In this document: positions 1 to 9,462 of the stretch, in pieces
How the letters are laid out: each line of letters starts with the position of its first letter
Position numbering within the stretch: position 1 is the stretch's first letter
From: Onthophagus taurus
Taxonomy: Eukaryota; Arthropoda; Insecta; Coleoptera; Scarabaeidae
Reading direction: 5' to 3'
Length of the DNA: 64,000 bases
Assembly (NCBI RefSeq): GCF_036711975.1
Contig: NC_091976.1
Span: forward strand, 34,286,001-34,350,000
Position numbers and translations under genes: made by a program
Notes under the pieces: generated by a model
The model's input: only the letters and a program-made list of their open reading frames with translations
Told to the model about the DNA's origin: nothing
Databases searched by the model: none

Positions 1-302
1 TTCGAGCTAAATTGCTTGGAAATGATTTTACGATGATTGGGATTGTTTCAGTTTCTTTGTCAGATCTAAAAACAAAAATGGATTAATTATATTGATTTAA
101 ACTTTATAACATCTTACCCAGCTTCACATATTTCAATGGAAAATCTGGTCACAAGACTTAAATAAGATTCTCCTTTTGTTGTGGGAGCCCCAAAAGAGAT
201 GTTTTTAACAATTGGATTTGTGAATTTACTCTTTTTGTTAACTATGTCTGTAATAACGTTCGAATTGAATTTTTCTGATACAGTTTTGGTTAAAATATCC
301 AT
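1..302 (-). CDS. Ecdysteroid kinase-like (CHK/EcKL) protein, 5' end only
   Basis: This is the beginning of a minus-strand gene that runs off the left edge. Exon 1 is 302 to 118 (ATG at 302) and ends at a GTAAGA donor. Exon 2 starts at 65 after a pyrimidine-rich TTTTTAG acceptor and continues past base 1. The joined frame reads into KETETIPIIVKSFPSNLAR. The order, a glycine-rich GESYLSLVTRF stretch followed by a hydrophobic P-I-I-V-K-x-x-P segment, matches the nucleotide-binding lobe of insect EcKL/CHK kinase-like proteins, where the lysine binds ATP phosphate. Family members phosphorylate ecdysteroids or other small hydroxylated molecules in the cytosol. The catalytic Brenner motif lies outside the window, so the assignment rests on the N-lobe only. 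Confidence 0.7.
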
Positions 303-910
303 TTTAATGTAATTTTCTTTGTTTTTAAGGAGTTAAGTTAACACGTTTTAGAGTTAAGTGCCCCCAATTCAGTAGAACTTTTCTCTTTAAGTACTTTATA
401 TTATAATTACACGATTATATAAAGTAAATATTACGTTTGCAATAAACATTTAAGTAAAATGGAATTCAAGGTGTTTTATTTTTAATTTTTGTTATGAAAA
501 AATAAATTCACAATTAAATATTTAATTATAAGATAAAATAGAAAGATGATTATTTAAAATAAAAAATAAACAAGAATTGTTTATTTTATAAAATAATTTT
601 ATAATAAATTCTTTTAATAAAGTATTGATACGTCAAATATAAACCTAACCTCACATATTTTTTTATCTCTGACTAGTATTGCCAGATTTGAACATTATAC
701 CACAGAAAAATGAATTAATTGATTATAAAATTTTTTTATAATAATTTAAAACAAATCTATTTTAAAATAAAATTTTATAATTTATAATTTAAGTACAGTT
801 CCCTGTAATATATAATATGTCAAAGTCAGTTTTGACATAAATAACTCCTAAGCCCATTTAGGTCCAAAATATGTCGTAATCGCCCCACGCAGCAAAGAAA
901 AGACCGCACA
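303..910. other. AT-rich spacer between divergent genes
   Basis: About 600 bases separate the EcKL start from the CEBPZOS/UQCC3/TBCC cluster on the other strand. The stretch is strongly AT-rich. I see no gene or clear repeat in it; it should hold promoters for both directions. Confidence 0.5.
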
Positions 911-1327
911 TGTCCAAGAATTGGGTAAATTATGTTGATAAAAACGCCGAAACCGACTAAATACAAATTTGTTCGTAAAGCTGCTACAGTTTTGTTCGTC
1001 GCTGAAGGATTGTTTTTTGGTGGATGTTATTACGTTTATCATAAATTAAACACAGATAGGGGTAATTTCCTTTATTATTTGTATTTTAATAATAATTCTA
1101 AATAATTAATATTAAAAGATATCTAAATTAAAATCTTCAAATCATTAAAAAAAAAATTGTGTAGGCAACCAACATTACATGTATTTTTTGAAGATTTTAG
1201 ATTTTATATGCACAATAATTTCCCAAAGATTTTAAATTATTATTACTCTTTGGGGGAAAGAATTGGAGGGACTGGCGAGAGAATAAAAGAAATTGACCAA
1301 GCTTATTGGGCGAATAACTCAAATTAA
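911..1327 (+). CDS. CEBPZOS: CEBPZOS-like small mitochondrial membrane protein
   Basis: Two exons encode the body of a roughly 80-90 residue protein. The first runs to 1061 (GTAATT donor) and the second is 1194-1327, after an acceptor ending at 1193. From 962 the frame gives YKFVRKAATVLF, one hydrophobic membrane segment (FVAEGLFFGGCYYVY), then DFRFYMHNNFPKIL and a tail KEIDQAYWANNSN. The human CEBPZOS protein has the same layout: one helix near the N-terminus, DFRxxMxxxFPxIL, and an E-L/I-D-Q-x-x-W-x-N ending. The start is unclear. ATG at 933 reads a natural N-terminus (MLIKTPKPT) but is one base out of frame with the body. ATG at 911 is in frame but meets TAA at 959-961. Either a one-base assembly error, a real lesion or an unseen 5' exon is involved. 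Its stop overlaps the next start. Confidence 0.72.
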
Positions 1328-1632
1328 TGGCAAATAAACTCTTAAAATCGTTAATTTACTTCACGGGTTTTACAGGTTTGGGTTATTTACTATTAATTGC
1401 CACAAAACCCAGTGAAGCTTCAATCGAACAAATTAAAAAGGTTTTTGTTTTAACACCGTATCAATTAATCTAATAAAAAATTAATTTATTTAATTTATAG
1501 AAATATCCCAATCAACGAGAAACTTCTGCTGAATCATTGAAAAAAAGGGAGCAATTTGCTAAAGTTTTACAATCAGCCGCAGCAGATACACCAATTTATT
1601 TAAAAAATAAAGAACCATCTAAAGACGAATAA
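1327..1632 (+). CDS. UQCC3: UQCC3-like complex III assembly factor
   Basis: Exons 1327-1440 and 1501-1632 encode 81 residues. The single membrane segment (IYFTGFTGLGYLLLIATKP) near the N-terminus is followed by a charged helical tail (KKKYPNQRETSAES, KKREQFAKVLQSAAADTP). UQCC3 in vertebrates has the same size, one N-terminal membrane helix with GxGYxLL and a P, and an amphipathic tail that includes REExxRTQQLLxxLQEAA. It sits in the mitochondrial inner membrane and helps assemble cytochrome b into complex III. The ATG overlaps the upstream CEBPZOS stop by one base (TAATG), so both frames probably share a transcript. TBCC starts 13 bases after this stop. Identity rests on a short alignment made by eye. 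Confidence 0.7.
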
Positions 1633-1645
1633 TTATAATACAAAA

Positions 1646-2662
1646 ATGGAGTCGAATTTACTTCAAGAACGTTGCGATCGTAAAATAGAAATGTTAACAA
1701 AGCGTGAAAATGAGCGAAAACAAGATTTAGAGAAAGGAAACGCCTTAAAAAAATTAACAAACGCCGAAAATGAGCAATTAAGCTACTTCGAAAAGAGTTT
1801 TAATGAGAAAAAATCGAAAATCGAACAAGATCTTAATAAATCAAGTGAAATAAAAATCAAGGATTTGCCCGAACACTTTGATAAAATTTCTAAGGACATT
1901 TTGAGTCTACAAAAATATTTGGCGGGGTCAAATTTGTTTTTACGAGGATACGATATTAAAATTTATCAACAAATCGTTCAAAATTTAGGAAATCAATTCA
2001 AAGACATCGAAGACGAACTCATCCCAAAAAAAAAGTTTGGATTTAAGAATATTAAAACCACTAAAAATAAAATTGAAGATCAACTAAATAACATAAAAAA
2101 CGGGGAATCATCGAAAATTGATGAAGTCGATTCGAGTATCATTAAAAAAAATCTTTTTACAACAACATGCGATTTAATCGATAAATCCAATGAAACTTTA
2201 TCATTAGATTCAACGGATATTTACAAAAAAGATATTGCGCTAACTAACTTAACTAATTGCAAGGTAAAGTTGTTGGGGACTCCTTCAACTTTGCATATAA
2301 ACAAATTAAAAGATTGCTACATTTTTACTGGACCCGTTTCCACTTCGATTTTTGCTGAAAACTGTTTTAATTGCACTTTGATTATTGCTTGCCAACAATT
2401 ACGATTGCACAGTTCTGAAAACGTTCGTATTTACCTGCATGTCACTAGTAGAGCTATAATGGAAGATTGCAACCAAATCTTTTTAGCCCCTTATAATTAT
2501 CATTATAAAGGTATTGATGAGGATTTTGAAAAAGCTGGTTTAAATCAATTAATTAATAATTGGACAAGCATTGATGATTTTAACTGGTTAAATATTGAGA
2601 GAGCTTCACCCCATTGGAGTTGTTTAAATGAAAATGAACGTGTTAGTGATTGGGAAGATTAG
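1646..2662 (+). CDS. TBCC: Tubulin-specific chaperone C (TBCC)
   Basis: A single exon of 338 codons. TBCC is the last cofactor of the tubulin folding pathway: with cofactors D and E it stimulates GTP hydrolysis by beta-tubulin and releases alpha/beta dimers in the cytosol. Residues 1-130 are charged and coiled-coil-like, matching the N-terminal spectrin-like domain. Residues about 195-335 form the C-CAP/TBCC beta-helix: KVKLLGTPSTLHINKLKDC, TGPVSTSIFAENCFNC, ACQQLRLHSSENVRIYL. In the last of these the arginine of QLRLH is the conserved catalytic 'arginine finger' of the family. ATG at 1646 fits the family length (about 345). It begins 13 bases after the UQCC3-like stop, so it may be carried on the same message or have a very compact promoter inside that gene. 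AATAAA is at about 2704. The last 76 or so codons are duplicated downstream. Confidence 0.95.
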   Translation: MESNLLQERCDRKIEMLTKRENERKQDLEKGNALKKLTNAENEQLSYFEKSFNEKKSKIEQDLNKSSEIKIKDLPEHFDKISKDILSLQKYLAGSNLFLRGYDIKIYQQIVQNLGNQFKDIEDELIPKKKFGFKNIKTTKNKIEDQLNNIKNGESSKIDEVDSSIIKKNLFTTTCDLIDKSNETLSLDSTDIYKKDIALTNLTNCKVKLLGTPSTLHINKLKDCYIFTGPVSTSIFAENCFNCTLIIACQQLRLHSSENVRIYLHVTSRAIMEDCNQIFLAPYNYHYKGIDEDFEKAGLNQLINNWTSIDDFNWLNIERASPHWSCLNENERVSDWED

Positions 2663-2727
2663 TGAAACGATTTTGGTTGTTTAGTTCTTTTTTATGTGAT
2701 AAAAATAAATGTATAAAAAAATTATTT

Positions 2728-2916
2728 TTAATTTATTTTCATTTTAACTTCGTCTAAAACACAATTTTTATTTAATTTAAATTCCATATCTTTGAGTTTG
2801 TTTATTTTTTCACCAATTTCTTTCAATTTCTTTGAATCATCTTCCGTTATCTTAAAAGGATTATTTTCTTCTTGATTAAACTGAACCTCAACTACATTAA
2901 CCTCGTATTCACTCAT
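2728..2916 (-). CDS. Orphan 62-residue protein, copy 1
   Basis: A short minus-strand frame, convergent with TBCC and ending 65 bases from its stop. I do not recognise the family. The protein is acidic at the N-terminus (MSEYEVNVVEVQFNQEENN) and has a lysine/glutamate-rich helix at residues 24-47 (KITEDDSKKLKEIGEKINKL) that looks coiled-coil-like. The ATG has a good CAAAATG context, and a near-palindromic ATCGATA (DREF-like) lies just upstream. A second copy at 6129-6317 encodes the same protein although DNA positions differ between them, which favours a translated gene. It could still be one exon of a longer gene. Confidence 0.45.
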   Translation of the reverse strand: MSEYEVNVVEVQFNQEENNPFKITEDDSKKLKEIGEKINKLKDMEFKLNKNCVLDEVKMKIN

Positions 2917-2951
2917 TTTGGGGTAAGAAAATATCGATCAAACACTTTATT

Positions 2952-3972
2952 CATATATATACTATCTTCTATATCGCTGACTCCCTATCTAAGCAATGAG
3001 TGGCGAGCGTTTCCATCAAAAGAAGACGGAATGATATATGTTTTGTCTTTGTCGTGCCCCCATGTCGCGAAGGCGCTTGCACGAATCGTAAATTTTAAAG
3101 AGTTTGAAGTGCTTCGCGCGTATTTTATGCAGCTTTGAAATGCAATTATTGTAGATAATTGACTTTAATTATAAATTATCATAGATGCATCAAATAAATT
3201 AGAATATATGTACTTTTGTGTGAAATTGACGTTGAATATTGCTTTAAATATCAACTTTATGTAGGTTGTTCATTAAACATTATATTCTTTAAAATTAAAT
3301 TAATACATATATACATAGTAATTATTAAAAATGTGTACCAAAATATAGTTATTAATTTTTAACATAATTTGTGAGTTCACGCCCTTTAATGAAGTTGTTA
3401 CATTAATTAAAGATATAAAATATGTACTTAGGGTACTTACTATTTAATGTACATAATATTCTATCATAAAATTTTCATCATATCGATGTAATTATTAATT
3501 AAATTTTTAAGAAAAATGTTTCAAGAAAAGGAGGGCTTTAAATTCTTTTTTATTACACTGAGATCGTTCCTTCTACCTGCTCAACCAATTTTTAGGCCCC
3601 AAAAATATCTTTTAACAAATTTTCTTCACTTTCTTAACAAATAATAATTACATTTTAAATTGCTAAGTCCTAAAATATGTTAATAATTATGTTATTATAC
3701 ACATGAAACCTATAATATACATAACTAAATATTTAGATTTTAGGTTATGTTTATGTTAAACATTTATTTGGTGATTTATAAACATCAAGGTCAACAGCTG
3801 CTATTAATTTTTAATTCACCGTCCAATAAGATAAACGCGTACTCACCACGTGTTCACGCATTTCTCTTGAGTAGACGGGGCTACGACAGAGACAGATATA
3901 TATATATCTGCACTCTAGTGTTTACACTCTTTTGCTGCCTTAGTCAGCGATATAGGAGATAGTATATATATG
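2952..3972. mobile_element. Non-autonomous hAT-like element, copy 1
   Basis: The ends are inverted (CATATATATACTATCTTC and its complement, extending about 30 bases through CGCTGAC). Flanking direct repeats ACTTTATT at 2944-2951 and 3973-3980 give an 8 bp target-site duplication. The duplicate block at 6340 shows a near-empty site. No transposase frame is present; short open frames inside are chance. An 8 bp target site suggests hAT mobilisation. Confidence 0.85.
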
Positions 3973-4192
3973 ACTTTATTGTTAAATATAGTTAAATTAG
4001 TTATATTTAGTTTTAAAAGTTTAGGTTGGTAAGAGAAAAGAAGTTAGGTTAGAGCCAGTGTTGCCAAACGTACGATAATTATCGTACACGTACAGGTTGG
4101 CCAAATTGGGCACTTTTAACCCTCCAGTGGTGACGCGCGGTCTTTTGGACTGACAGACACTCTCGGTCTGCATGTCACTAGTAGAGCTATAA

Positions 4193-5858
4193 CACACATG
4201 ATTTCGGGACTCAATTCTGATAATTGTTCATGAAAGTAGCCCCAAAAAAAAGAACTTCTGCATCATTCGTATGGTCATGGTACATCAAATAATAATTTAA
4301 AAATTAATTTGAAGTTAGTAAGTATCGTATAGGGGAATTTGTCACGTTTTAGGCTCTTTTGTTTGTCATAACTGGAGAACCACTAGTACGAATAAGCTGA
4401 AACAAATTTAAAAAAATTAAGAATTACAATTCCTTTAATCTGTTCATACAACGTTTCGCTACATAAGCAACAGTTTCGCAGTTATAAATAAATGTATGAA
4501 GAAAAAAACTATTTTTTGCCTAAAAAATTTAAATTTTTTATTTTTAATTCATAAAAAATCCAAAACGGTAGAAATTTTTATATGTTATCTATGCATGGAA
4601 ACAAAATTTAGAACATTTTCAATTAGTGTGGTTCTCGCTTGTGGTTCTGATGACCTTATTTTCTTAGTAGGTTGTTCATATTCATGTTCTGAGTCTGCAT
4701 CATCATCCGAGTTACACATAATATTCAAGGGCATGTTTTGTTCAGTGTGTCCACAAATTTCAGTGTCATCTTCATCTTCGGTGCGTTCATCTTCAAACTG
4801 CACAATTGTAGAACTCCACCAACAAACCTCCGCAAGCAATGCATCCAATTTTTTGTCTTTGAATCGCTTTTCCATTGGCATGGTCACCTGGTGGAACCTC
4901 TCCCTTTGTTCGTCCGATTCCTGAGGTAATTGTGCCAAAAAGATATCAAGGTGGAAATGCCGGAAATGTAATTTTAACGTCATGGATGCATTGATTTTTT
5001 CAAAATAATACAGCAAGTTGTCCACTCGTGTCTGTATGTCATCTTGCTGTACACGGTTCTTTCCTAAAACGCCTTCGATGACTTGTTTCAATGCGTCCCA
5101 TGCACATAGGTGGTTATAATGGTTCGAAAGCATATTTGTGAAAGATTCACTTTTCATTAATTTTCGTATATCCGGTTTCGGCTTGCAGGGACACAGTATA
5201 CAGACTGGGAGGTTTAGGTGTATCGGTATCAGCAGCGCGTTTAACTGGAAGTGTGGCAGTAAAAGCAGCAAGGTATACTTTTGTTTTCAATTGTTTTCTG
5301 TTTAATCCATGACGAGAATTTATGCATGCGTAGCACCTGGATTCGTCATGTCCAGTTAGGTCTTCCACCAAAATTACTGGCTTCATAAAAGAAAACTGTC
5401 CACCTTTTCCATGTATCCACATTATAAGGGTATTATAACAATTTTTGCACACTGTGTTCGGCGTAAAATTTGCACCACTTAAATCTGTTTCATCAAAATA
5501 ATGACAATACGCTGTTTTGAATTCCTCAGAAAACAAATTTTTTTCGATCCAGTTGCCTTTTTTTTGGGACGATATGACCACAAACGTAACAAAAATTATC
5601 CAATTTTGGACACTTCTTATTTTCCATATTGAAATATATTATGTTTTGTTGTTATTCACTTTTAAAAACTGGAGAAAAATTAAATTAAATTAAATTAAAA
5701 ATATACGATACTTACTAGCTTCAAATTAATTTTTAAATTATTATTTGATGTACCATGACCATACGAATGATGCAGAAGTTCTTCTTTTTGGGGCTACTTT
5801 CATAAACAATTATCAGAATTGAGTCCCAAATCAATCACCTGAAAAATGTTGTACTGTG
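4193..5858 (-). mobile_element. Inverted-repeat element with an orphan transposase-like protein
   Basis: The arms at 4193-4331 and about 5702-5858 are inverted copies of each other; the left arm lacks about 19 bases near its tip. The outer tips read CACA...TGTG, and the target duplication looks like only AA. Between them, on the minus strand, are two overlapping frames. The first (5581 to 5147) carries a zinc-binding region with VCKNCYNTL and CYACIN. The second (5271 to 4585) has PDIRKLMK, MTLKLHFRHFHLDIF and ERFHQ...MEKRF...LLAEVCWW. These motifs belong to an arthropod protein family often annotated as uncharacterised, in which the usual sequence is E-x-G-E-R-F-H-Q-D. The central part expected in that family is missing, so the copy is probably an internally deleted, non-autonomous derivative. 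Confidence 0.65.
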
Positions 5859-6063
5859 AATGGAAGATTGCAACCAAATCTTTTTAGCCCCTTATAATTA
5901 TCGTTATAAAGGTATCGATGAGGATTTTGAAAAAGCTGGTTTAAATCAATTAATTAATAATTGGACGAGCATTGATGATTTTAACTGGTTGAATATTGAG
6001 AGAGCTTCACCCCATTGGAGTTGTTTAAATGAAAATGAACGTGTTAGTGATTGGGAAGATTAG
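5859..6063 (+). pseudogene. TBCC 3' fragment in the duplicated block
   Basis: The last 67 codons of TBCC, nearly identical to 2458-2662, with the natural stop but without the rest of the gene. The frame is open but has no upstream coding part because the duplication started inside the gene and an element inserted at its edge. It is best read as a dead fragment. Confidence 0.85.
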
Positions 6064-6128
6064 TGAAACGATTTTGGTTGTTTAGTTCTTTTTTATGTGA
6101 TAAAAATAAATGTATAAAAAAATTATTT

Positions 6129-6317
6129 TTAATTTATTTTCATTTTAACTTCGTCTAAAACACAATTTTTATTTAATTTAAATTCCATATCTTTGAGTTT
6201 GTTTATTTTTTCACCGATTTCTTTCAATTTCTTTGAATCATCTTCTGTTATCTTAAAAGGATTATTTTCTTCTTGATTAAACTGAACCTCAACTACATTA
6301 ACCTCGTATTCACTCAT
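6129..6317 (-). CDS. Orphan 62-residue protein, copy 2
   Basis: This copy encodes the same 62 residues as the frame at 2728-2916; the few DNA differences between the two blocks here are silent. The upstream 30 bases, including the ATCGATA motif, are also kept, so both copies could be expressed. Function unknown. Confidence 0.45.
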   Translation of the reverse strand: MSEYEVNVVEVQFNQEENNPFKITEDDSKKLKEIGEKINKLKDMEFKLNKNCVLDEVKMKIN

Positions 6318-6474
6318 TTTGGGGTAAGAAAATATCGATCAAACACTTTAATTATTGTTAAATACAGTTAAGTTAGTTATATTTAGTTTTAAGAGTTTAG
6401 GTTGGTAAGAGAAAAGAAGTTAGTTTAGAGCCAGTGTTGCCAAACGTACGATAATTATCGTACACGTCCAGGTG

Positions 6475-6560
6475 GGCCAAATTGGGCACTTTTAACCCTC
6501 CAGTGGTGACGCGCGGTCTCTTGGACCGACAGACACTCTCGATCTGTCGGACCAACGTCA
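6475..6560. repeat. Possible piggyBac-type terminal fragment
   Basis: TTTTAACCCTCCAGTGGTGACG followed by a GC-rich stretch occurs here and at about 4116 in the left block. The TTAA-CCCT start and GC-rich inner sequence resemble a piggyBac-family end, but no partner end is seen. Confidence 0.25.
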
Positions 6561-6579: not shown

Positions 6580-9062
6580 TCGTACATTTATTTATTTATT
6601 TATTTCTAAAATAAACAGGGTTTCCCCTAATTACAGATTTCGGAATTACTACATAATAATTAAACAAAATTGAACTAAATATTAAACTAAGCCGTACTCG
6701 ATTTGTAAGCAAACAATAAAAAAGCAAATAAGTAAAAAGAAACAAAATGATACAAAATAAAACAATAACGTAAAACAGAACAGAGGAATGGAACAGAATG
6801 CGCGAAGAATTATGAACTATAACAAGATTCTATAAGATCAGCCACTGCACTGGGCGGTTGCAACGTTCATCACAGACATCAAATTCTTTTTTACTGTTTT
6901 TACATCAACGCCAAATAGTGGGATGAAGGAAGCCATAGATAGTTTGTTATATAACAAGAGAATTCTAATAAAAGGAGAATTTCTTCTGAGTTCAGTGGTA
7001 AAGCGGGGAATGTAAAATAGATTTTTCAATCGTCCACAATATGCCGGCACGTAAAAACCAATCTTTACCAAGATTAAAGGTGCATCTATTTTATTGTTTA
7101 ATATTTTACATAGAAAACAAAGCGATATGATTTTCCTTCTAATAGATAACTTAGTTATATCAAATAATGTACGCGCAAATTCGTACGATCTGAACCCGAT
7201 AAAGGCATTAAATTGTTTGTAATAAGTATACCGAATAAACTTATTTTGAATAATTTCGATTAAGTTTGAATCATATATATACTATCTTCTATATCGCTGA
7301 CTAAGGCAGCAAAAGAGTGTAAACACTAGAGTGCAGATATATATATATCTGTCTTTGTCGTACCCCCGTCGACTCAAGAGACATGTGTGAACACGTGATG
7401 AGTACGCTTTTATCTTATTGGACGGTGAATTAAAAATTAATAGCAGCTGATGACCTTGATGTTTATAAATCAACAAATAAATGTTTGACATAAACATAAC
7501 CTAAAATCTAAATATTTAGTTATGTATATTATAGGTTTCATGTGTATAATAACATAATTATTAACATATTTTAGGACTAAGCAATTTAAAATGTAATTGT
7601 TATTTGTTAAGAAAGTGAAGCAAATGTGTTAAAAGTAAAATAAAAAAGAAAAAGAGTAGTGGAGATATTTTTGGGTCCTAAAAATTGGTTGAGCAGGTAG
7701 AAGGAAAGGTCTCAGTGTAATAAAAAAGAATTCAAAGTCCTCCTTTTCTTGAAACATTTTTCTTTATAAACATTTAGAGTACATATACTCTAATTTATTT
7801 GATGCATCAGTGATAATTTATAGTTAAAGTAAACCATCTATAATAATAATTGCATTTTAAAGCTGCATAAAATACGCGCGAAACACTTCAAACTCTTTAA
7901 AATTTACGATTCGCGCTAGCGCTTTCGCGACACGGGGGTACGACAAAGACAAAACATATATCATTCCGTCTTCTTTTGATGGAAACGCTCGCCACTCATT
8001 GCTTAGATAGGGAGTCAGCGATATAGAAGATAGTATATATATGGTTTGAATAAAGGTCTGATCCAGGATCCCATACAATTACCGCGTATTCTAATTTAGA
8101 TCGCACCAATGAATTGAATAATAATTTTAACGTCTCCACATTTGAAAAACTATAAGCATTTCTTATAATAAATCCTAAGAGTCGAAGTGCTGCGGAAGTT
8201 ATGGTTTTCACGTGCTCGGCAAAGCATAAATTGTTGGTAAAAATAATACCTAGGTCCCTCTTTCTGACAACTGATTTCAAATTTATATTATCTATTCTGT
8301 ACACAAATTTTGGCCACGTTAAAGTGAAGTTTGTTCAGCCGACACCAATCGCATACATTATCCAGATCAGACTGTAAAGACTGGCAGTCACTTATATCAC
8401 GAACAGATGTGAATATTTTCAGATCGTCCGCAAAGAGTAAGCATCTAGATGGATTAATTAGCAAAGGTAAATCATTTATGAATAATAGAAACAATAAAGG
8501 TCCCAGATTGCTTCCCTGCGGAACCCCTGAATCTATCCCCAACACATCTGAGAGTGTGTTTTTATATGTGACATAGTAATTCCTATTGGATAAGTACGAT
8601 ACAAAGAAATTAAGAGTTGGATAAGAGAAACCATAAAGCGCCAGCTTGCGTAGAAGGGTATCGTGATCGACCTTATCAAACGCCTTTGTAAAATCAGTAT
8701 ATATAACGTCAACTTGACTTTTTGTAGCTAACGCTCTGGACACATAGTCAGAAAAGATACACAAATTGGTCTCGACAGAGCGGTTAGGAATGAATCCGTG
8801 TTGGTCAATATGTAACGCAATTTTAACATGATTAAATATTCTGTGATAAATTATTTGCTCGAAAACTTTTGCGAAACAAGAAATTACCGAAATAGGTCTG
8901 TAATTCTTTATATCGCCCGTGTGGCCTGATTTATGAATTGGCGTAACCCTTGCAAGTTTCCATTGATTTGGAAATGTATTTGTTGAAATTGATAAGTTAA
9001 AGATGATATATAAGGGTGTTAGAAACGATATTAACGATATTAACAGCTCATGCTCTACCATT
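6580..9062 (-). mobile_element. LINE (CR1/Jockey-like) reverse transcriptase, 5'-truncated and interrupted
   Basis: The reverse transcriptase region is read from 9061 down to about 8288 and continues in another frame to 7996. It shows ARVTPIHKSG, NYRPISVISCFAKVFE, TDFTKAFDKVDHD, SGVPQGSNLGPLLFLLFIND and the catalytic box LLFADDLKIF. The 3' part of the reading frame resumes at 7071-6838, beyond a hAT-like MITE at 7272-8043. The 3' end is an AAAT microsatellite at about 6583-6600, typical of CR1/Jockey-group elements. The 5' two thirds (endonuclease, ORF1) are missing: the sequence stops at the MITE at 9064. The frame shifts and insertion mean it is not active. Confidence 0.85.
7272..8043. mobile_element. 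Non-autonomous hAT-like element, copy 2 (inside the LINE)
   Basis: Same family as 2952-3972, in the opposite orientation and internally shorter (772 bp). The terminal CATATATATACTATCTTC inverted repeats are intact, with perfect 8 bp target duplications GTTTGAAT at 7264-7271 and 8044-8051. It splits the LINE, so it is younger than that insertion. Confidence 0.87.
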
Positions 9063-9063
9063 A

Positions 9064-9462
9064 TACTCTGTTTTTAAACCAGTAGGAGTAAACGCGAAAG
9101 TCAGATTTACACTAGGAAAAATCACCAGAAAATATCACTAGATATTTTGGCGGTAAATTTAAATTAATAATTATTATTATTTATTTATTTACTTATTATT
9201 GTATTTATTTTCGTTTGTTATCGTCAACACTAAACATACAAATTAACATTGAAGTTATGAGTGTATTTATTTCAAAATATAATAAAGAAGGGTTTAAGAA
9301 CACAAAATTTACAATAATGATACGAAACTGTCGAATTGTCAATAACCTAACCTTCAAATTCAAAATTGTCTATGTGTGAACCTTCCTCGCATTCAACCAA
9401 TCACGTGCAAGGTCAATCTGGTGACAAATTTAAAATACTCCTCCTGGTTTAAAAACAGAGTA
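9064..9462. mobile_element. MITE with TACTCTG ends, copy 1
   Basis: The inverted ends start TACTCTGTTTTTAAACCAG and continue to AGGAGTA; TA repeats flank both sides, which suggests Tc1/mariner-type insertion. It is about 93% similar by eye to the copy at 10147-10516 and has an extra 25 or so bases before its right end. No coding capacity. Confidence 0.8.

What the first reader, a model, noticed from the sequence alone, without database searches (positions are those of the whole stretch)
911..2662. Possible polycistronic locus: CEBPZOS-like, UQCC3-like and TBCC
The CEBPZOS-like stop and UQCC3-like ATG overlap as TAATG, and TBCC begins 13 bases after the UQCC3-like stop. There is no room for a terminator and promoter between the first two, so one spliced message probably encodes two small mitochondrial membrane proteins, and TBCC may be on it as well. 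Dicistronic mitochondrial microprotein pairs are known in flies (sloth1/sloth2, complex III), but this particular pairing is not one I know as described.
Basis: partly seen in the sequence, partly recalled or inferred. Interest (0 to 1): 0.75.

Follow-up and report, generated by a model that had tools for sequence, protein, structure and literature searches.

The report
Likely shared messenger for three genes
Three real genes, two for tiny mitochondrial proteins and one for a tubulin chaperone, sit so tightly head to tail that one messenger RNA probably encodes at least two of them, an arrangement that is unusual but of a kind already known in insects.

Summary
CEBPZOS-like exons (932-1061 + 1194-1327) end in TAA at 1325-1327, which shares one base with the UQCC3 ATG at 1327 (TAATG). 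UQCC3 (1327-1440 + 1501-1632) stops 13 bases before TBCC (1646-2662). UQCC3 and TBCC pass Pfam cut-offs. CEBPZOS and UQCC3 each have one convincing locus in the 291-Mb genome; TBCC has one complete copy plus a local 3' fragment.

As a control, counterparts of the fly dicistron sloth1/sloth2 lie in the same genome 12 nt apart, so this spacing fits a true dicistron. Best reading: one spliced message carries CEBPZOS-UQCC3, probably also TBCC. Translation is most likely by leaky scanning, perhaps with some stop-start reinitiation: the UQCC3 AUG context is weak, the TBCC context near-perfect. Two tests gave no support: AUG depletion in UQCC3 is not significant once its protein is held fixed, and TAATG has no TURBS core or convincing RNA structure. 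No RNA data and no related genomes were available, so one transcript is inferred, not shown. Kind known (159 fly dicistrons); this pairing was not found in my paper searches.

The parts
932..1061 (+). CEBPZOS-like exon 1 (start ATG 932, context taaattATGT); carries the hydrophobic stretch
   Evidence: own-genome protein search
1062..1193 (+). CEBPZOS-like intron, GT...AG, 132 nt
   Evidence: of the 8 GT/AG choices listed, this one keeps the CEBPZOS similarity through the junction to the end
1194..1327 (+). CEBPZOS-like exon 2, stop TAA 1325-1327
1325..1329 (+). TAATG overlapping stop-start
1327..1440 (+). UQCC3 exon 1 (context aaattaATGG, T at -3)
1441..1500 (+). UQCC3 intron, 60 nt, donor GTTTTT, acceptor TTTATAG
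   Evidence: Pfam match runs through the junction (residues 4-72)
1501..1632 (+). UQCC3 exon 2, stop TAA 1630-1632
1633..1645 (+). 13-nt spacer TTATAATACAAAA
1646..2662 (+). TBCC, intronless coding sequence, 338 aa (context acaaaaATGG, near-optimal)
2704..2709 (+). AATAAA about 40 nt after the TBCC stop, followed by T-rich sequence: likely poly(A) signal of the unit (inferred)
910..960 (+). 16-codon upstream frame overlapping the CEBPZOS start; matters only if transcription starts upstream of it

Best explanation
A compact nuclear polycistronic locus. One promoter upstream of 932 gives one pre-mRNA, which is spliced twice and polyadenylated shortly after 2704. It carries CEBPZOS-like and UQCC3, and probably TBCC too. 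CEBPZOS is translated first. UQCC3 is reached mainly by ribosomes that scan past the CEBPZOS AUG, perhaps helped by one-base stop-start reinitiation at TAATG. TBCC is reached by further leakage past the weak UQCC3 AUG to a near-perfect AUG, with no other AUG in between. Shown here: frames, homology, geometry, AUG contexts, and a control pair with the same spacing. Inferred: the shared transcript and the way of translation.
For: Exact TAATG and 13-nt gap. UQCC3 and TBCC above Pfam cut-offs. Each of the three has one complete copy and it is here (the other places are two chance-level hits at E 0.24 and 0.37, and a TBCC 3' fragment). In the same genome the counterparts of sloth1/sloth2, a dicistron shown by experiment in flies, are 12 nt apart with an intron inside the first frame; the spliced sloth1 scores better than the unspliced reading (119.6 against 97.8 bits). 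Fly loci that give only polycistronic transcripts have gaps from -34 to 319 nt (PMC4528330, passages), so -1 and 13 fall inside. AUG contexts run weak to strong from UQCC3 (T at -3) to TBCC (AAAA before ATGG), the same order as fly sloth1 (non-optimal) and sloth2 (optimal), where leaky scanning was supported by reporters (PMC9681215, passages). Between the UQCC3 AUG and the TBCC AUG the spliced message has no other AUG.
Against: No transcript or ribosome data. No related insect genome could be searched, so conservation of the order is untested. The missing AUGs in UQCC3 follow from its protein: synonymous recoding gives P = 0.18, codon permutation P = 0.51. The CEBPZOS AUG has A at -3 and the UQCC3 AUG does not, the wrong way round for leakage from the first to the second. 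Two weak AUGs (1024, 1208) lie between them; 1208 opens 39 codons in the CEBPZOS frame. AATAAA at 1606 could end a UQCC3 message just before TBCC. TBCC has no known link to the other two (general knowledge).
Confidence: 0.68

Rival explanations
1. A dicistron (CEBPZOS-UQCC3) and a separate TBCC gene. TBCC has its own promoter inside UQCC3 (intron or exon 2); the first message ends at AATAAA 1606.
For: AATAAA at 1606, 40 nt before the TBCC AUG. The near-perfect TBCC AUG context is what an ordinary first AUG would have. TBCC works in a different pathway (general knowledge). In flies, where a polycistronic locus also gives a separate message for its 3' gene, that message usually starts from a downstream or external promoter (PMC4528330, passages).
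Against: AATAAA/ATTAAA words are common here by base composition: 5 in the two small coding sequences against 2.7 expected (no significance computed), 7 inside TBCC itself against 5.8. There is no obvious U-rich element after 1606 (read) and no initiator or TATAWA in 933-1645 (weak test). The 13-nt gap matches the sloth control (12 nt).
Confidence: 0.3
2. Three separate, overlapping transcription units, each with its own promoter inside the gene before it; the tight spacing is compaction only.
For: Not excluded by sequence; no RNA evidence was available. Promoters can lie inside neighbouring genes (general knowledge).
Against: It would need two promoters and two 3' ends inside about 700 nt of coding sequence and short introns. 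The surroundings are not compact: about 630 nt of AT-rich spacer precede CEBPZOS and repeats follow TBCC.
Confidence: 0.1
3. A rival for the mechanism only: UQCC3 is made mainly by coupled termination-reinitiation at UAAUG, as in influenza B segment 7 or the silkworm SART1 element.
For: The exact UAAUG pentamer; such coupling is documented in an insect retrotransposon and in viruses (PMC5972666, passages).
Against: No UGGGA core in the 80 nt upstream (nearest UGGG starts 19 nt before the stop and is followed by C). Folding: upstream z +0.9 (80 nt) and -0.8 (45 nt), downstream -0.3 (80 nt) and -2.1 (120 nt), spanning +1.2; one borderline value of five.
Confidence: 0.2
4. Alternative splicing or 5' ends give each frame its own message, for example a donor-like TGG|GTAAAT with exon end at 924 joined to 1194 or 1501, skipping the CEBPZOS start.
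For: A good-looking donor word lies just before ATG 932 (read).
Against: No read supports it; donor-like words are common. It was not tested further.
Confidence: 0.08

Closest known systems
sloth1/sloth2 (CG32736/CG42308; human SMIM4/C12orf73), Drosophila dicistron for complex III assembly (PMC9681215)
   Same: Two small hydrophobic mitochondrial proteins in frames a few bases apart; intron inside the first frame (in this genome's copy); weak then strong AUG context; one member of our set (UQCC3) is by its Pfam name also a complex III assembly factor
   Different: Different protein families; sloth1/2 are thought to be distant paralogs of each other, and no such relation was looked for here; gap 5 nt in fly and 12 nt in this genome against a 1-nt overlap; a third, unrelated frame follows here; the weak-then-strong order here is UQCC3 to TBCC, not CEBPZOS to UQCC3
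Dicistronic and polycistronic genes of Drosophila (FlyBase; PMC4528330)
   Same: Gap within the -34 to 319 nt range; small polypeptides over-represented among such genes; tri- and tetracistronic sets exist (7 and 2)
   Different: Those are backed by cDNA, RNA-Seq and start-site data; this one is not. I could not check whether CEBPZOS-UQCC3 is in the FlyBase list (File S1 of that paper was not read; the session allows no supplement look-ups)
mille-pattes/tarsal-less polycistronic gene (Tribolium, Drosophila; PMC6428570, search listing only)
   Same: Several frames on one insect message
   Different: Very short related peptides, developmental role, no homology (recalled)
Bicistronic genes of green algae read by leaky scanning (PMC11892635, passages)
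   Same: Weak ORF1 context, strong ORF2 context, few AUGs before ORF2, short gap (for UQCC3-TBCC)
   Different: Algae; AUG under-representation is supported there, not significant here
UAAUG stop-start coupling in silkworm SART1 and influenza B segment 7 (PMC5972666, passages)
   Same: Identical UAAUG pentamer (for SART1 by the title of the cited paper)
   Different: No TURBS core and no convincing structure here

Membership tests
UQCC3 (PF15141) | Profile match above the curated cut-off | tested here: met
   35.4 bits against 33.6, E 1e-8, residues 4-72
UQCC3 (PF15141) | N-terminal hydrophobic segment | tested here: inconclusive
   residues 8-26, mean hydropathy 1.51, just under the usual 1.6 mark (recalled)
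TBCC | N-terminal and C-terminal TBCC domains above cut-off | tested here: met
   PF16752 93.1 bits (cut-off 27), PF07986 142 bits (cut-off 24.8)
CEBPZOS | Sequence similarity over most of its length to human CEBPZOS | tested here: met
   35% over 79 columns, 122 against shuffle maximum 49; the human letters are from memory, so this is a strong lead and not a database test
CEBPZOS | Curated family model match | tested here: inconclusive
   no Pfam or NCBIfam match up to E 1; whether a CEBPZOS model exists in them was not checked
Insect dicistronic gene | Two conserved frames, same strand, gap within the known range | tested here: met
   range from PMC4528330; the CEBPZOS part rests on the recalled human sequence
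Insect dicistronic gene | One processed mRNA holding both frames | not testable with these tools
   no cDNA or RNA-seq
Insect dicistronic gene | Order conserved between species | not testable with these tools
   no other insect genome held; genome-contig scan with TBCC: 30 pattern matches, none a relative
Leaky-scanning bicistron | Weak first AUG, strong second AUG | tested here: inconclusive
   met for UQCC3-TBCC (T at -3, then AAAA); not met for CEBPZOS-UQCC3 (A at -3, then T at -3)
Leaky-scanning bicistron | AUG depletion in the upstream frame | tested here: not met
   UQCC3 0 internal AUG, P 0.18/0.51 with protein fixed, 0.056 by dinucleotide shuffle; CEBPZOS 2, P 0.76/0.72, 0.10 by dinucleotide shuffle
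TURBS-type termination-reinitiation | UGGGA core upstream of UAAUG | tested here: not met
   80 nt upstream

The most novel reading that the evidence does not exclude
A true tricistronic nuclear message in which graded leaky scanning sets the amounts of two mitochondrial membrane microproteins and a tubulin cofactor, with CEBPZOS, for which my searches showed no function (2 of 23 papers opened), acting next to UQCC3 in respiratory complex III assembly, so that operon-like linkage points to its role.
Probability: 0.25. Interest if true: 0.65.

Novelty: new member of a known kind. Interest (0 to 1): 0.42.

Why it matters
If real, it would be another insect-type dicistron touching complex III biogenesis besides sloth1/sloth2, and it would give an orphan mitochondrial protein (CEBPZOS) a testable role by association. 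It would also suggest that small respiratory-assembly proteins are repeatedly packed on shared messages. It is a warning for gene annotation: the two small frames could be missed or read as the 5' leader of TBCC.

Tried and rejected
AUG desert in UQCC3: first looked like a signature of leaky scanning; rejected as evidence because the protein alone explains it. TURBS or RNA structure at TAATG: no support. Bacterial-type promoter/terminator scan: not relevant to an animal gene and at shuffle level (13 promoter-like found, 13.2 expected). Conservation in other genomes: one genome-contig scan with TBCC, 30 pattern matches, none a relative; no insect genomes are held. Telomere word TCAGG to test 'beetle': 0 matches, uninformative because the tool may skip simple repeats. 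A genome-wide pattern search was a poor probe and only served to learn the genome size and place. Fly gene numbers guessed from memory (CG42371, CG42372, CG31961) led nowhere. The STREMI paper on human polycistronic messages (PMC13303939, one passage) does not hold UQCC or SMIM4 in its main text.

Paper searches, all 10 used: CEBPZOS with UQCC3, 0 papers. Dicistronic/Drosophila/mitochondrial/TBCC, 82 papers with three or more terms, 20 listed; passages of 3 of them read. CEBPZOS alone, 23 papers, none with it in the title, 2 with it in the abstract (prognosis signatures for liver cancer by title); passages of 2 of the 23 read. UQCC3 with Drosophila, 21 papers, none opened; one (PMC8076222) is by title about protein-coding genes overlapping at their 5' ends on opposite strands and holds UQCC3 once. 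Fly gene numbers, 4 papers, 2 opened. UAAUG and reinitiation, 65 papers, 20 listed, 1 opened. UQCC3/C11orf83/TBCC with bi-, di- or polycistronic, 1007 papers hold two or more terms; of the 20 listed none holds UQCC3, C11orf83 or TBCC. Tribolium polycistronic, 10 papers, none opened. CCDC56/mtTFB1, 42 papers, 10 listed, none opened. CEBPZOS with complex III, 31 papers; of the 15 listed none holds CEBPZOS. So 'not described' means not found in these partly capped listings of an open-licence library.

Full report
What is there. The window lies at C11:34286001-34350000 of an unnamed 290.8-Mb assembly in 33 contigs. On the + strand three frames follow one another. A CEBPZOS-like gene of 87 aa has exons 932-1061 and 1194-1327. 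UQCC3 of 81 aa has exons 1327-1440 and 1501-1632. TBCC of 338 aa is intronless, 1646-2662. The stop of the first and the start of the second share one A (TAATG, 1325-1329). Thirteen bases separate the second stop and the third start.

Identity. UQCC3 passes the curated Pfam cut-off (35.4 against 33.6 bits) and the match runs through the intron junction, which supports the splice. TBCC passes both TBCC domain cut-offs and matches a solved tubulin-specific chaperone C over residues 15-337 (E 1.3e-62). The CEBPZOS-like protein has no Pfam or NCBIfam hit up to E 1; its one PDB hit up to E 5 is an unrelated protein at E 1.1. Human CEBPZOS is listed in two mitochondrial surveys, one of them of orphan proteins of the intermembrane space (PMC5404111 and PMC7066081, passages).

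Copy number. In the whole genome the CEBPZOS-like query gave 3 matches: its two exons here and one at E 0.24. UQCC3 gave 3: its two exons here and one at E 0.37. The TBCC family gave 2: this gene, and a 3' fragment with one stop at window 5854-5982. So the cluster holds the only convincing complete copies.

Control in the same genome. The families of sloth1 (PF15114) and sloth2 (PF14990) each gave one match, on the same strand of C1 about 100 bases apart. With an intron at L015:1646-1702 the first frame stops at 1761 and the second starts at 1774, a gap of 12 nt. The splice was picked by me from the choices; read without it the first frame would stop at 1680 and the gap would be 93 nt. The spliced protein scores better against PF15114 (119.6 against 97.8 bits, profile positions 2-66 against 2-59 of 67), which favours the 12-nt reading. 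In flies this pair is a dicistron with a full-length cDNA, and leaky scanning is supported by reporters (PMC9681215, passages). The spacing at our locus is therefore like that of a real dicistron. Across FlyBase, 159 dicistronic pairs, seven tricistronic and two tetracistronic sets are annotated, and loci with only polycistronic messages have gaps of -34 to 319 nt (PMC4528330, passages). A fly survey of conserved upstream frames found them over-represented on messages for mitochondrial import proteins (PMC2276209, passages).

How the frames could be read. In the spliced model the AUGs from 932 to 1646 are: 932 (taaattATGT, A at -3), 1024 (tggtggATGT, six codons), 1208 (ttttatATGC, in the CEBPZOS frame, 39 codons), 1327 (aaattaATGG, T at -3) and 1646 (acaaaaATGG, near-perfect). 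Between 1327 and 1646 there is none. This suits leaky scanning from UQCC3 to TBCC, less so from CEBPZOS to UQCC3. Results against: the lack of AUGs in UQCC3 is what its protein gives (0 observed; recoded mean 0.82, P 0.18; permuted mean 0.49, P 0.51; dinucleotide shuffle mean 2.25, P 0.056), and CEBPZOS is not depleted (2 observed; recoded mean 2.00, permuted 2.08). The UAAUG pentamer is that of SART1 and influenza B (PMC5972666, passages), but no UGGGA core lies in the 80 nt before it, and of five stretches folded around it only one is borderline (120 nt downstream, z -2.1). Reinitiation is thus possible and not favoured. If transcription starts upstream of 910, ribosomes that read the 910-960 frame would pass the CEBPZOS start and could reach UQCC3 by reinitiation; this is inference.

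Transcript ends. Nothing here shows a transcript. AATAAA at 2704, followed by T-rich sequence, is a good 3' end for the unit. AATAAA at 1606 might end a UQCC3 message; AATAAA/ATTAAA words number 5 in the two small genes against 2.7 expected and 7 in TBCC against 5.8 (no significance computed), so they are poor guides here. No TCAKTY or TATAWA word lies in 933-1645; the leader 600-931 has one TCAGTT (826) and three TATAWA words (638, 724, 809), none at the usual distance from it. By a hand estimate about 0.8 such initiator words are expected in 713 nt of this composition, so this is weak.

Verdict. One message for CEBPZOS-UQCC3 is likely (I put it near 0.85). One that also holds TBCC is somewhat better than even (near 0.6). 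The 0.68 given for the best explanation covers the whole statement. The kind is known; this combination did not turn up in ten searches of an open-licence library, most with capped listings, and the FlyBase table of polycistrons was not seen. Interest is moderate: the linkage predicts a role for CEBPZOS near complex III.

Noticed in passing
window 2435-4170 and 4168-6546: Tandem duplication whose left edge cuts TBCC: the second copy starts at 4168 with 25 bases of TBCC (2435-2459), is interrupted at about 4193-5858 by an element with 133-bp inverted ends (4199-4331 against 5702-5833, 97%), and goes on at 5859 (98.8% over 492 bp, then 95.4% over 195 bp). The upstream TBCC copy is complete.
   Followed up: yes
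window about 2950-3975: A roughly 1-kb insertion with 32-bp inverted ends present in the first copy of the duplication and absent from the second; an inverted relative lies at 7271-8063.
   Followed up: partly
window 114-302 (-) and L019:2437-6332 (-): Tandem copies of an ecdysteroid-kinase-like gene (PF02958, E 2.7e-56 for the one 345-aa stretch tested) with three near-identical first exons; the nearest copy lies head-to-head with the CEBPZOS gene, about 630 bp away.
   Followed up: partly
window 2728-2916 (-): A 62-aa frame running against the 3' end of TBCC, no Pfam or NCBIfam match up to E 1; its DNA is duplicated with the segment (within the 98.8% identical part).
   Followed up: partly
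L015:1489-1929 (C1:24586970-24587410): sloth1/sloth2 pair of this genome, 12-nt gap when spliced, with a two-codon upstream frame (ATGCAATGA) overlapping the sloth1 ATG.
   Followed up: partly
window 8288-9073 (-): Reverse transcriptase frame (PF00078, E 1.2e-29); the kind of element was not determined. Two long frames inside the 4193-5858 element (4585-5286 and 5147-5638, minus strand) had no Pfam match at E 0.001.
   Followed up: no
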